The notes under the pieces are model-generated. The model worked only from the letters and a program-made list of their open reading frames with translations. It made no database searches and was not told where the DNA came from. Below are positions 19,243 to 22,938 of a stretch of 64,000 bases of DNA, piece by piece (the stretch's first letter is position 1; the number at the start of each line of letters is the position of its first letter). The translations under genes and the position numbers were made by a program. This DNA comes from Armatimonadota bacterium (lineage in GTDB: Bacteria > Armatimonadota > Fimbriimonadia > Fimbriimonadales > ATM1), in assembly GCA_021324165.1 (NCBI GenBank), contig JAJPJR010000035.1, positions 1 to 64,000 of the forward strand, in the 5' to 3' direction.

Positions 19243-19605
19243 TTATCCGTCGCGGGTGTAAGGCTTCATGTCGCGCACGATCCGATTGTGTTCGTCGAGC
19301 AGAACGATTTTTGCTGTAACGTCTTCGTCGGCCCAAGTGAACGCCGCAATGATCAACCTGTCGCCCACGCTCACGCGTTTGGCGGCTGCGCCGTTGAGCC
19401 CAAACGTGTGCTTTTCTCCGGGGAAGCAGTAGGTGGTCAGCCGCTCGCCGTTTTCGATGTTCCAAATGTAAACAAACTCTCCCGGCACGAGGCCCACTCG
19501 GTCCATCACCTCGGGGCAGATTTCAATGCTGCCGACATATTCAGGATTCGCATACGTCACCCGCGCGTGATGAATCTTTGATTTAAGGAGTTGAATCAGT
19601 CGCAT
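19243..19605 (-). CDS. panD: aspartate 1-decarboxylase proenzyme
   Basis: The 120-residue protein has the conserved self-processing site, a Gly25-Ser26 pair in YVGSIEI; cleavage there creates the pyruvoyl cofactor on the new N-terminal serine. IWNIENGERLTTYCF and LNGAAAKRVSVGDRLIIAAF match the family. It makes beta-alanine from aspartate for pantothenate and coenzyme A synthesis. The gene overlaps the end of ccmF by 23 bp and precedes pyrE; its link to cytochrome biogenesis genes looks positional, not functional. Confidence 0.95.
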   Translation of the reverse strand: MRLIQLLKSKIHHARVTYANPEYVGSIEICPEVMDRVGLVPGEFVYIWNIENGERLTTYCFPGEKHTFGLNGAAAKRVSVGDRLIIAAFTWADEDVTAKIVLLDEHNRIVRDMKPYTRDG

Positions 19606-21931
19606 CGCTTTGGCCCGCTGGTTTGGCGCTGGAACGCACCTGCAGCATCGTCAGGAATCCGCCGAGCGCCATCATACCCGCGCCGATCCAAACAAGAATG
19701 GTCAAAGGCTTGTAATACAGTTCGATCGGCAATATCGGTTCGGAAAACTGCACCGAAAACGTCGCTTCGTGACTGCCTGCTTGAACCGATTCCAGAACGA
19801 CCACGAAGTCATCGCCAGCTGGCGCAGGAACCCTCACTGCGTTTCCTCGATCCAGCACCAGTTCCGGCTCGGCATCGAACGTCTTCGCATCGTACACAAC
19901 CTTCAGTTTCGTGCCGAACCGAGTGCCCGACATTCCGGGCTGCCCGTGCATCACAAACTTTTGATATTCAATTTTGATGTTTTGAATTTCGCCGCTTTTG
20001 CCCGGCATCAGGCTGATCGAGTTTCCGAACGTGGTGATGGGAGATGAGACGCTCAAATAAAGGTCATACAATGGCGAGCCGAAAATTGCGGGTCGGGTGA
20101 CCAGCATCGGCTCGCCATCATCGGAATCCATTTTGAAATAGTGTGAAACGTCGGCGCGAAGGTCGGTGCTTTGGCTGCGCAGATCCGTAAGTTCGACCTT
20201 CAAACGGTTTTCTGGTCGAACCCACTCGCTGAGCGATGGCGTTCGTTCGAGCCGAACCAAAAACGCTTTCGGCCCCGCCTGCAATTGAGCGGGACGTGTA
20301 ACCGAAACGAACGATTTGACCTCGCGTTCGAACGCGCTCGAAACGATCAGCCCCATCAGCAGCAGCGAGACTCCCGTGTGCATGGCAAAAGGCGCCCAAC
20401 GTCCACGCTTTCGCGCGCTCTCGAACGTCCGCCATAAATTCGCGATGATAGAGGACACGCACAAAAAAACGATTATCGAAAGCAGAACAAGCAGGTTGGG
20501 GCTGCGCTGATCGAACAGTCCTTGACTTCGTATATACCAGATCGCTGCTCCCGAATACAAAAGCGATGCGACTCCGATGCTCGCAAGGTCGGCCCACCGT
20601 TTTGTCTGCGTCTTTGTCCATCCCAAAAACGGCACGATCGCCATCAGCAGCATAAACGGAATGAACGCATACGGCACGATGCGATTGTAGGTCGCCTGCT
20701 CGATCACTCTCGCTTTTCCTTGATCGTCGAAACGCCCAAATATCGCGCTGAAAAACGGGACGGACATTCCGATCGCCGCGATAAGCGCGATCGCATAAGT
20801 GGACGCGATTCCCAGCGCAAATCCGATGAGACGATCACCTCCTGCGGCAGTTTGGGGTCGCGGTTCTTTGCGCGCAAGCAACAGCGCTCCCAACGCGATC
20901 ACCGATGCCGCCACGGCGATTACGAATCCCAAAAGCAGACGATGCGCGCCTTCACCCATCCGAGCGAAACTGTGAACCGAAACATCCGCGAGCACTCCGC
21001 TTCGCGTGAGAAACGTGCCGTAGGAAAACCAGAACAGCGGAAGCGCGCCGAGAAACAGACTGAGCCTCTGCCACCTTCCGCGACGCAGGCGCACATACAA
21101 CGCATGAAGAAACGCCACGGCGCCCAGAAACGGAACCAGGCTCACGTTCTCGACAGGATCCCACGCCCAAAACCCTCCCCAGCCGAGCGTTTCATAAGCC
21201 CACAGCCCGCCCATCACAACGCCGATGCCAAGCATGGTGGTCGAGAACACGGCGAGCGGCCGAATCGCAGGCGCCCACGAATTGCGATCGAAGCATACGG
21301 CCGCCGACCAGACCCACGCGAACATCGCCAGCAGCGAGCCGAAGCCTGTGAAAATCACCCACGGATGAATCGCCATCCAATAGTTTTCCAAAACCGGATT
21401 GAGCCCGCGCCCATCAGGAGGAACGGGATGCCTGATTCCCGCCGGAAGAAGATTCAGGTCTTCCTGGCGCCATTGCAACAGGTTGAACGGCGATTCGAAT
21501 GCCACGATCCCCAGCAGCGCCGCAAGCGCAACACCGCACACAATCAGAAAAACGGGCCGATAGATCCCGACGCGGAACGACACGAAAAACGCGATGAGCG
21601 AACTGGTCAGCGTCCATAACAGGAAACTGCCCTCCTGCGAAGCCCAAGCGGCGCTCAGCCGATAAATCTCTTTCAAATCGTCGCGCGTGTTCGCAAATAC
21701 ATAAGCGAACTCGTACTGCCGAGACATCAGCAGCGTTACATGAATCGCAAACGCGCACACGGTGGCGGCCACGCCAAGACCGAAAAAGATGTGCGACAGT
21801 TTTGTGCGCCGAAAGATTCCGGCGATTACAACGGCCAGAAAGCTGCAGATGGCGAAAATCACGATCGCCTTGCCGGCGGTTCCCAAACCGATCGCCCAGC
21901 CCGGGGCGTCCCTAATCACAAAGTTGGGCAT
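19583..21931 (-). CDS. ccmF: cytochrome c haem lyase CcmF
   Basis: This 782-residue polytopic protein shows the haem-handling WWD-type motif WGGFWAWDPVENVSLVPFL (near residue 225) and the upstream ASQEGSFLLW and HPWVIFTGF segments, plus a C-terminal soluble domain followed by a last membrane helix. CcmF takes haem from holo-CcmE and, with CcmH where present, attaches it to CXXCH apocytochromes in the periplasm. It follows ccmE by 3 bp. No ccmA, B, C, G or H gene is in the window, so the pathway must be completed elsewhere. Confidence 0.95.
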   Translation of the reverse strand: MPNFVIRDAPGWAIGLGTAGKAIVIFAICSFLAVVIAGIFRRTKLSHIFFGLGVAATVCAFAIHVTLLMSRQYEFAYVFANTRDDLKEIYRLSAAWASQEGSFLLWTLTSSLIAFFVSFRVGIYRPVFLIVCGVALAALLGIVAFESPFNLLQWRQEDLNLLPAGIRHPVPPDGRGLNPVLENYWMAIHPWVIFTGFGSLLAMFAWVWSAAVCFDRNSWAPAIRPLAVFSTTMLGIGVVMGGLWAYETLGWGGFWAWDPVENVSLVPFLGAVAFLHALYVRLRRGRWQRLSLFLGALPLFWFSYGTFLTRSGVLADVSVHSFARMGEGAHRLLLGFVIAVAASVIALGALLLARKEPRPQTAAGGDRLIGFALGIASTYAIALIAAIGMSVPFFSAIFGRFDDQGKARVIEQATYNRIVPYAFIPFMLLMAIVPFLGWTKTQTKRWADLASIGVASLLYSGAAIWYIRSQGLFDQRSPNLLVLLSIIVFLCVSSIIANLWRTFESARKRGRWAPFAMHTGVSLLLMGLIVSSAFEREVKSFVSVTRPAQLQAGPKAFLVRLERTPSLSEWVRPENRLKVELTDLRSQSTDLRADVSHYFKMDSDDGEPMLVTRPAIFGSPLYDLYLSVSSPITTFGNSISLMPGKSGEIQNIKIEYQKFVMHGQPGMSGTRFGTKLKVVYDAKTFDAEPELVLDRGNAVRVPAPAGDDFVVVLESVQAGSHEATFSVQFSEPILPIELYYKPLTILVWIGAGMMALGGFLTMLQVRSSAKPAGQSDATDSTP

Positions 21932-21934
21932 CGG

Positions 21935-22306
21935 CTATCTGTCGGCGGCCTCGTATTTGCTGGGGCATTGGGTTTTTATGGAATCGGCGGCGAACTGCCC
22001 GTTCCTGCCGGTGCCGCCGACCGATGCTTTCGGAGCGGAATCAAAGTTGGGAGGCTTCGCGCCGTGGTACACCACTTTCAACCGGTCTCCCGAATCGTCA
22101 ATCAGATCGAATTGGAATACTCCGGAAGCGATGTCGAAAGAGGCGGAGTTATGGTCAATCGTCCCAGCCACGTGGACGTATCTGCCGTTCGAGGCGGCGG
22201 CTTCCTTTGCCGATACATACGGGGTGGCGTTCGCCATAAAGGCGTAAACCATCAGGCAGATTCCAAACAGAATCAGAAAGGCGGTTGCAAGGGCGCCGAA
22301 CTTCAC
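21935..22306 (-). CDS. ccmE: cytochrome c maturation haem chaperone CcmE, CxxxY type
   Basis: The 123-residue protein has one N-terminal membrane anchor (residues 5-24) and an OB-fold beta barrel (YVHVAGTI, FDLIDDSGDRLKVVYHGAKPPNF). In classical CcmE haem is bound covalently by a histidine in an HDENY-like motif; here that position reads CPSKY (114-118), the CxxxY variant described for archaea and some bacteria. It would carry haem to CcmF. Translation starts at GTG 22306. A TAAAAT element 14 bases upstream could be its -10 promoter. Confidence 0.92.
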   Translation of the reverse strand: MKFGALATAFLILFGICLMVYAFMANATPYVSAKEAAASNGRYVHVAGTIDHNSASFDIASGVFQFDLIDDSGDRLKVVYHGAKPPNFDSAPKASVGGTGRNGQFAADSIKTQCPSKYEAADR

Positions 22307-22383
22307 GGTGATCTGTTGTGATTTTACGCTCGAAACCGTCCCAAATGCCGCGAAAAGGTAAGATTACAGCGCGGTTTGTTCGC

Positions 22384-22938
22384 ATGAAACTCAAAATCTT
22401 CCTGATTTCGTTGGCCGCCGCGGCAATCGGCGCGGTCGGACTGCTTAGGGCGCAAGGCAGCCCAAAACCTAACCCCCCGGCCAAGAAGTACGCCACCATG
22501 CGCCTGCAGAGCGACATCGGCAGTTTCTGGTGCGAGGGAGAGGGCCATGTGGAGCTCACGTTTCGGGGAACGCTGCTGATCAGCGACTTCCAGGGCTCGA
22601 CCCTGACGGTCACGGGCAGAGTGAAAAAGGAGTGGGACAAATGGGGCCGGCAGGTGTGGTTTGCCGCCTTGGATGCTCAGGGGCGGCCCGCAAAACTGGT
22701 TTTGGACGGCAAGTGGAGGCGGCTGAACTGGTTTGGTGGCGACCTGAACTGCACGTGGCACGGAGCCGGGTTGGCGATGCTTTTCGGCGAGTTTTCTGAG
22801 CGCACCGGCTCGACGGGTTCGATTCAAGTGGACGACAGCGAGAAACGCCCATGGTTCACCACGGGCACCACTTACCATCTTCCGCCGGGGCCCGGCGAGT
22901 TCGAAAAACTGAAAGTTCCTGAGCCGCCTTCCAACTGA
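22384..22938 (+). CDS. secreted protein of unknown function
   Basis: The 184-residue protein has a standard signal peptide (MKLKIFLISLAAAAIGAVGLL, cleavage likely after LLRA), then a mature region rich in predicted beta strands and tryptophan (SFWCEGEGHVELTFRGTLLI, RQVWFAALDAQG, RRLNWFGGDLNCTWHG). Two cysteines (in FWCEG and LNCTW) could form a disulfide. It ends in a proline-rich tail. The start at 22384 is set by the signal peptide. It is divergent from ccmE and precedes atpD by 75 bp. I do not recognise a family. Confidence 0.75.
   Translation: MKLKIFLISLAAAAIGAVGLLRAQGSPKPNPPAKKYATMRLQSDIGSFWCEGEGHVELTFRGTLLISDFQGSTLTVTGRVKKEWDKWGRQVWFAALDAQGRPAKLVLDGKWRRLNWFGGDLNCTWHGAGLAMLFGEFSERTGSTGSIQVDDSEKRPWFTTGTTYHLPPGPGEFEKLKVPEPPSN

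What the first reader, a model, noticed from the sequence alone, without database searches (positions are those of the whole stretch)
21935..22306. CcmE with cysteine in place of the haem-binding histidine
Residues 114-118 read CPSKY where classical CcmE has the haem-binding histidine motif. This is the CxxxY type described in archaea and a few bacteria with reduced Ccm systems. It implies a different covalent haem attachment and possibly the absence of CcmH or CcmG; neither of those genes is adjacent.
Basis: partly seen in the sequence, partly recalled or inferred. Interest (0 to 1): 0.55.

Follow-up and report, generated by a model that had tools for sequence, protein, structure and literature searches.

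The report
Cysteine-type haem chaperone, CcmH-free synthase
The gene is the haem carrier of a known, slimmed-down pathway for attaching haem to cytochromes c, and the enzyme encoded beside it carries a doubled outer cap that, in the genomes examined, goes with absence of the usual partner protein CcmH.

Summary
In detail: window 21935-22306 (-) encodes a CcmE with CPSKY (C114-Y118), the only CcmE match in the genome. It is an ordinary member of 'System I*', described in print with this motif. In this phylum (Armatimonadota) 83 of 83 genomes read have the cysteine. CcmB and CcmC, with a ccmA and a weakly supported CcmD-like frame, lie on another contig. CcmH was not found; CcmG is unsettled; a DsbD and six CXXCH cytochrome domains are present.

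The less expected part is the neighbour. CcmF (19583-21931) has about 100 extra periplasmic residues, which profile comparison shows to be a tandem second copy of the single beta-cap module of E. coli/Thermus-type CcmF. Of 103 CcmFs, 20 are single-cap (121-149 residues) and 83 double-cap (212-384), none between. CcmH accompanies 16 of 19 single-cap CcmFs assessed and is over the family cut-off in 0 of 65 named double-cap genomes. In 46 double-cap Armatimonadota genomes it occurs once, beside a separate single-cap CcmF. Cysteine-type CcmE occurs with both types, so here CcmF type, not the cysteine, predicts CcmH. The split is one event on the tree, so this is association, not proof.

The parts
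21935..22306 (-). ccmE (123 aa, GTG start): membrane-anchored haem chaperone of cysteine type
   Evidence: PF03100 46.7 bits, cut-off 24.6; weak match to D. vulgaris CcmE 2kct, E 0.18
21953..21967 (-). CPSKY motif, residues 114-118; C114 is the expected haem-attachment residue
   Evidence: sequence; C114, P115 and Y118 invariant in 31 aligned CcmEs
19583..21931 (-). ccmF (782 aa), double-cap type; three nucleotides separate it from ccmE
   Evidence: PF01578 71.8 bits and PF16327 40.9 bits, both over cut-off; AF2 model aligns to Thermus CcmF 6zmq with Z 31.9, rmsd 2.9, 562 residues
21146..21181 (-). WWD haem-binding motif of CcmF (WGGFWAWDPVEN, residues 251-262)
   Evidence: sequence; W255, W257, D258, P259, V260, E261 and N262 invariant in alignments A2 and A4
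20042..20335 (-). CcmF beta-cap module 1 (residues about 533-630)
   Evidence: profile of 20 single-cap CcmF periplasmic domains matches it, hhalign P 97.7, E 2.3e-12; best of 40 column shuffles E 0.049
19700..20047 (-). CcmF beta-cap module 2 (residues about 629-744), the extra segment of double-cap CcmF
   Evidence: the single-cap profile matches it too, P 96.4, E 1.1e-9; best of 40 column shuffles E 0.1; the modelled module aligns to 6zmq residues 511-608, Z 10.7, rmsd 2.9, 92 residues
19243..19605 (-). panD (aspartate decarboxylase), overlaps the end of ccmF by 23 bases; conserved neighbour, probably unrelated in function
   Evidence: PF02261 119 bits; a panD at the end of ccmF in 19 other loci
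22318..22938 (+). divergent ORF of unknown function, conserved beside ccmE in this order
   Evidence: no Pfam or NCBIfam match at E 0.001; homologues in other ccmE loci

Best explanation
The protein is the haem chaperone CcmE of a bacterial System I* cytochrome c maturation pathway in an Armatimonadota genome. Proposed working: CcmABC, probably with CcmD, hands haem to membrane-anchored CcmE, which holds it through C114 with Y118 as likely axial ligand. CcmE passes it to the WWD site of the adjacent CcmF, which attaches it to CXXCH cytochromes such as the CoxII-cytochrome c fusion. Shown by sequence: CcmE and its motif, ccmA/B/C/F, no detectable CcmH, cytochrome c targets, four conserved CcmF histidines, DsbD. 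Inferred: covalent haem binding at C114, the order of transfer, the source of thiol reductant, and that CcmF works without CcmH. Added finding: CcmF is of a double-cap subfamily whose periplasmic region is a tandem repeat of the usual single cap.
For: One CcmE match in the genome. CcmF adjacent. CcmC and CcmB on C12, each over cut-off, with ccmA beside them (TIGR01189 111 bits, under its cut-off of 131.6, but the best of its families). No CcmH in own genome; 4 of 291 in the phylum against 198 of 291 for CcmE. Six of six PF13442 matches carry CXXCH, four of them over the cut-off. E. coli CcmF H173, H261, H303 and H491 align with window H189, H276, H320 and H518. DsbD 97.8 bits. System I* with CPSKY, working without CcmH and CcmG when moved from Desulfovibrio to E. 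coli, is in print (PMC3601427, passages). In Methanosarcina acetivorans neither C120A nor C120H of CcmE gave holocytochrome (PMC9084895, passages). Double cap.
Against: No chemistry was tested. For D. vulgaris CcmE a review reports non-covalent ferric haem binding through its cysteine (PMC3884852, passages), so covalent attachment is not certain. The genome is 97.2% complete, so a missing CcmH could lie in a gap, although the near-absence in the phylum makes this unlikely. The tyrosine is not universal: one Armatimonadota CcmE reads CPSKE and one Chloroflexota CPSRF. The CcmD-like frame is weak (TIGR04391 13.3 bits, cut-off 24, E 0.063). ccmEF and ccmABC lie on different contigs; joint expression was not examined.
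Confidence: 0.87

Rival explanations
1. The cysteine type is lineage history rather than mechanism: the ancestor had CPSKY and nothing about CcmH or CcmF follows from it.
For: Cysteine-type CcmE occurs with single-cap CcmF plus CcmH and with double-cap CcmF without CcmH. The CcmF split needs only one change on the tree, and only 2-3 independent pairs exist for CcmH presence.
Against: C114, P115 and Y118 are invariant across 31 divergent CcmEs, so the residues are under constraint. In print, C120A and C120H of M. acetivorans CcmE gave no holocytochrome (PMC9084895, passages).
Confidence: 0.3
2. The double cap of CcmF has nothing to do with CcmH. It serves another need, such as bulky c-type substrates, and the link with CcmH absence is coincidence of descent.
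For: The split is one event on the CcmF tree without independent replication. Single-cap CcmF without CcmH exists: G001, G002 and Sulfobacillus L202. The double cap has no CXXC (0 of 45 domains) and so cannot do CcmH's thiol chemistry.
Against: CcmH was over the cut-off in 0 of 65 named double-cap genomes. Armatimonadota, Bacillota and Chloroflexota each hold both CcmF types, and CcmH follows the CcmF type rather than the phylum, with the three exceptions just named. In the one double-cap genome with a CcmH over the cut-off (G136) that CcmH lies beside a single-cap CcmF end on its own contig.
Confidence: 0.5
3. CcmH is present but too divergent for the Pfam model, or is replaced by an unrelated thiol protein.
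For: A zinc-ribbon protein with two half-CcmH-like domains lies near the double-cap CcmF of L196; my own iterated CcmH profile, which took it in, scores it E 6e-32 while PF03918 does not report it in that genome. Two similar proteins score under the PF03918 cut-off (L227, L228). The own genome has ResA/TlpA-like proteins L123 and L124.
Against: In the own genome PF03918 gives no match at E 0.001, while it detects divergent CcmHs of the same phylum in G003, G004 (25.5 bits, just over the cut-off of 25) and G006. The own genome was not searched with my own profile.
Confidence: 0.15

Closest known systems
System I* (variant Ccm system; Desulfovibrio, archaea and other bacteria)
   Same: CPSKY-type CcmE, CcmF present, CcmH not found; the 2011 review gives CPSKY as the commonest motif, 25 of 36 genomes (PMC3601427, passages).
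   Different: Armatimonadota is not among the bacterial groups named in the passages read (delta-proteobacteria, chloroflexi, firmicutes). A double-cap CcmF is not mentioned in those passages. The CcmF type of D. desulfuricans could not be tested here.
Archaeal streamlined Ccm (Methanosarcina acetivorans CcmABCEF)
   Same: Cysteine-type CcmE and CcmF without CcmH; ccmABC, ccmE and ccmF not in one operon (PMC9084895, passages).
   Different: Archaea lack CcmD and M. acetivorans has a split CcmF (CcmF1, CcmF2) (same passages). Here ccmE and ccmF are adjacent, CcmF is one chain, and a CcmD-like frame follows ccmC.
Classical System I (E. coli CcmABCDEFGH; Thermus CcmF 6zmq)
   Same: Same CcmF membrane core with WWD motif and four haem histidines.
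   Different: E. coli CcmE has histidine (KHDENY) and CcmH and CcmG are encoded beside CcmF; its CcmF has one cap (123 residues against 230 here).

Membership tests
System I* (cysteine-type Ccm) | CcmE with Cys in place of the haem-binding His, followed by xxxY | tested here: met
   CPSKY, residues 114-118
System I* (cysteine-type Ccm) | No His-type CcmE besides it | tested here: met
   1 PF03100 match in the genome
System I* (cysteine-type Ccm) | ccmA, ccmB, ccmC and ccmF present | tested here: met
   ccmA scores under its NCBIfam cut-off (111 against 131.6) but lies next to ccmB
System I* (cysteine-type Ccm) | CcmH absent (original description; about one third of bacteria with such a CcmE have it) | tested here: met
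   0 PF03918 matches in the own genome
System I* (cysteine-type Ccm) | CcmG absent (D. desulfuricans) | tested here: inconclusive
   13 Redoxin matches; 8 became loci, 7 proteins printed, 2 scanned: best DsbE score 49.2 bits, cut-off 123
System I* (cysteine-type Ccm) | Covalent haem on the CcmE cysteine | not testable with these tools
   needs protein
Classical System I | His in CcmE (HxxxY) and CcmH present | tested here: not met
Archaeal Ccm | CcmD absent | tested here: inconclusive
   48-residue CcmD-like reading frame after ccmC, best hit CcmD_alt_fam, E 0.063, under cut-off; similar short frames in 6 of 8 relatives' stretches looked at

The most novel reading that the evidence does not exclude
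Double-cap CcmF is a self-sufficient, CcmH-independent holocytochrome c synthase, found here under about eleven phylum names. Tandem duplication of its periplasmic beta-cap gave it a second module that holds or orients the apocytochrome as CcmH does elsewhere, while thiol reduction (no CXXC in the caps) is left to DsbD and thioredoxin-like proteins. CcmF type, not the CcmE cysteine, would then mark CcmH-free Ccm systems.
Probability: 0.35. Interest if true: 0.65.

Novelty: new variant of a known kind. Interest (0 to 1): 0.42.

Why it matters
What CcmH does in haem attachment is still unclear, and several System I* organisms do without it. A CcmF subfamily with a duplicated cap and no CcmH gives a concrete suspect for what replaces it. 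The prediction is simple: delete module 2, add CcmH. If right, it would also give a one-gene marker for CcmH-free cytochrome c maturation in Bacteroidota, Armatimonadota and others. The cysteine-type CcmE by itself adds only a further phylum to a known list.

Tried and rejected
Rejected: 'absence of CcmH follows from the cysteine', because cysteine-type CcmE and CcmH share genomes. Rejected: 'the CcmF double cap contains a CcmH-like thiol site' (0 of 45 domains with CXXC). Rejected: 'the cap modules are a copy of the CcmE OB fold' (hhalign P 0.2-1.1). Not significant: the independent-pairs test of CcmH against CcmF type (2 pairs on starred branches, 3 in all), because both follow one deep split. 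Foldseek alone gave no match at E <= 0.001 for the cap model. In the VIA list the top matches for module 2 were 6zmq (Z 10.7) and CcsBA 7s9y (Z 9.5), with viral envelope proteins next at Z 7.2-8.4, so the CcsBA match is suggestive only. Module 1 was barely covered by that list, so its relation rests on profiles, not on structure.

CcmE motifs were read in 83 of 198 CcmE-bearing Armatimonadota genomes; the rest were not fetched. Frames under 550 residues were left out of the CcmF measurement. CcmH of five controls was judged from annotation and my own profile on the fetched stretch, not from a whole-genome search. The Deinococcus plasmid was not assessed. The CcmF type of Desulfovibrio and of archaea could not be examined.

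Full report
What was checked. The ORF at 21935-22306 on the minus strand reads as 123 residues from a GTG start and ends ...DSIKTQCPSKYEAADR. Pfam calls it CcmE with 46.7 bits, cut-off 24.6. In alignment with 30 relatives C114, P115 and Y118 are invariant.

The rest of the pathway. ccmF lies directly downstream (19583-21931), three nucleotides from ccmE. CcmC and CcmB are on contig C12, with ccmA beside them and a 48-residue CcmD-like frame after ccmC (best hit CcmD_alt_fam, E 0.063, under its cut-off). Similar short frames were printed for 6 of 8 stretches around the end of ccmC in relatives. CcmH was not found in the own genome. A DsbD in a 645-codon frame is present. Thirteen Redoxin matches exist; the two proteins scanned score below the DsbE/CcmG cut-off, so CcmG remains open. 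All six PF13442 matches carry CXXCH, four of them over the cut-off; they include a CoxII fused to cytochrome c and, by eye, a cytochrome b fused to cytochrome c. The pathway therefore has substrates.

How common the cysteine is. In the phylum, 198 of 291 genomes have CcmE and 4 of 291 have CcmH. I read the motif in 83 distinct genomes: CPSKY 76, CPSRY 3, CPTKY 3 and one with the cysteine but no tyrosine (CPSKE); 83 of 83 have the cysteine. The phylum is Armatimonadota: the named Chthonomonas locus L128 is the closest row to G028, a genome of the window's phylum. Of the 80 named CcmF loci, 68 stretches held a CcmE: 67 with cysteine, 1 with histidine (L199). Literature: System I* with CPSKY in 25 of 36 genomes, and CcmH in about one third of such bacteria (PMC3601427, passages read). 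The cysteine-type CcmE is therefore known, and the cysteine alone does not predict absence of CcmH.

The CcmF difference. While aligning CcmF I saw that CcmFs from the few CcmH-bearing Armatimonadota lack a stretch of the periplasmic region. I measured the distance from the conserved TM histidine (H518) to the conserved tryptophan of the last helix (W748). In 103 CcmFs it is 121-149 in 20 and 212-384 in 83, with none between. E. coli has 123, the window 230. Thermus 6zmq, from the alignment printed, is about 121 by my own count.

CcmH status. Named genomes (80): 65 with a complete double-cap CcmF, CcmH over the cut-off in 0; 10 single-cap, CcmH in 9; 5 incomplete CcmF, CcmH in 0. Three further matches lay under the cut-off. 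G358 and G368 are zinc-ribbon proteins with half a CcmH-like domain. G324 (E 9.1e-4, double-cap) is a short stretch inside a 716-residue frame, which I judged not to be CcmH. Against the pattern: L196, double-cap, has a zinc-ribbon protein with two half-CcmH-like domains nearby, which my own iterated profile took in but PF03918 did not report. Armatimonadota: 51 genomes measured, 46 double-cap and 5 single-cap. Three of the 5 single-cap genomes have CcmH (G003, G004, G006; G004 only just over the cut-off) and two do not (G001, G002). Among the double-cap genomes only G136 has a CcmH. It lies on a separate 3,044-base contig beside a CcmG-like protein and the end of another, single-cap CcmF (123 residues). 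The contig's GC content (0.615) is close to that of G136's own ccm contig (0.612) and its CcmH matches proteobacterial plasmids best in that collection, so contamination is possible but unproven; the pattern holds either way. With five annotated controls, 16 of 19 single-cap CcmFs assessed have CcmH, 3 do not (G001, G002, Sulfobacillus L202), and 1 (Deinococcus plasmid) was not assessed; L191 is counted once with G004.

Tree. A tree of the membrane core alone, without the cap columns, puts the 20 single-cap and 83 double-cap CcmFs on two sides of one branch with SH-aLRT 100. So this is a deep subfamily split. It gives only 2-3 independent pairs for CcmH, too few for a test. In its favour, Armatimonadota, Bacillota and Chloroflexota each hold both types, and CcmH goes with the CcmF type rather than the phylum, apart from the three exceptions named. 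Record titles of the 65 named double-cap loci name 12 phyla; the two labelled Pseudomonadota branch within Bacteroidota and are probably mislabelled bins, hence 'about eleven'.

What the extra stretch is. AlphaFold2 on the window's periplasmic region with 44 relatives gives mean pLDDT 89.6 and two successive beta modules. A profile of 20 single-cap domains matches module 1 (P 97.7, E 2.3e-12) and module 2 (P 96.4, E 1.1e-9), and the modules match each other (P 84, E 7.4e-6) (E-values for single comparisons). With shuffled columns the best of 40 was E 0.049, 0.1 and 0.18; reversed profiles gave 0.0094, 0.034 and 0.15; the CcmE OB profile gave 0.049-0.35. Module 2 of the model aligns to Thermus CcmF 511-608 with Z 10.7 and to CcsBA 7s9y (range 101-304) with Z 9.5. 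The full CcmF model aligns to 6zmq with Z 31.9. The simplest reading is a tandem duplication of the cap. No CXXC is present in 45 domains, so CcmH's thiol chemistry is not supplied by it.

Mechanism. Shown: gene content, motif, conserved CcmF residues, doubled cap. Taken from print: the cysteine is required for holo-CcmE in M. acetivorans (PMC9084895, passages); a Desulfovibrio system works in E. coli without CcmH and CcmG (PMC3601427, passages); CcmF has a periplasmic beta structure above the haem that may cap the active site, and CcmH probably aids CXXCH binding (PMC10663686, passages); models place CcmH and CcmG around a groove at CcmF (PMC8975832, passages). Inferred: that the second cap module takes over substrate holding. 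The E. coli histidine numbers 261 and 491 are recalled; 173 and 303 appear. Y118 as axial ligand is inferred from E. coli Tyr134.

In print? Ten searches were made. In the listings seen (20 of 29, 20 of 205, all papers in the others) no title or abstract start announced a duplicated CcmF cap or its link to CcmH; apart from passages of six papers the texts were not read. One search (Armatimonadota with cytochrome c biogenesis) found no paper. The library holds only open-licence papers; Allen 2006, Goddard 2010 and Brausemann's CcmF structure paper were not read, so prior notice is possible.

Verdict. The given finding is real but known in kind. The adjacent double-cap CcmF is the part worth following.

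Noticed in passing
window 22318-22938 (+): Secreted-looking protein without Pfam or NCBIfam match, divergent from ccmE; 33 matching frames (own copies and duplicates included), in ccmE loci of the same family and order. Possibly linked to cytochrome c maturation.
   Followed up: partly
window 19243-19605 (-): panD overlaps the end of ccmF by 23 bases; a panD lies at the end of ccmF in 19 other loci of the phylum.
   Followed up: partly
L196:2496-3479, L227:1483-2037, L228:1213-1710: Zinc-ribbon proteins with one or two half-CcmH-like domains in genomes of CcmF relatives, not reported by or below the cut-off of PF03918.
   Followed up: partly
L036:932-1477, L038:369-833, L069:7543-7905, L202:9839-10147: Short membrane proteins beside single-cap CcmF, three of four with a C-terminal zinc ribbon, resembling the CcmI N-terminus by eye.
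   Followed up: no
L178:6925-7311: Second CcmE-like gene without the CPSKY motif beside a normal one in Mucilaginibacter.
   Followed up: no
L042/L048 (G066), L039/L046 (G067): Two double-cap CcmF genes in one genome, about 2.7 kb apart in G066.
   Followed up: no
L202:7341 (Sulfobacillus): CcmE motif CPDHY with single-cap CcmF and no CcmH found: an odd intermediate case.
   Followed up: no
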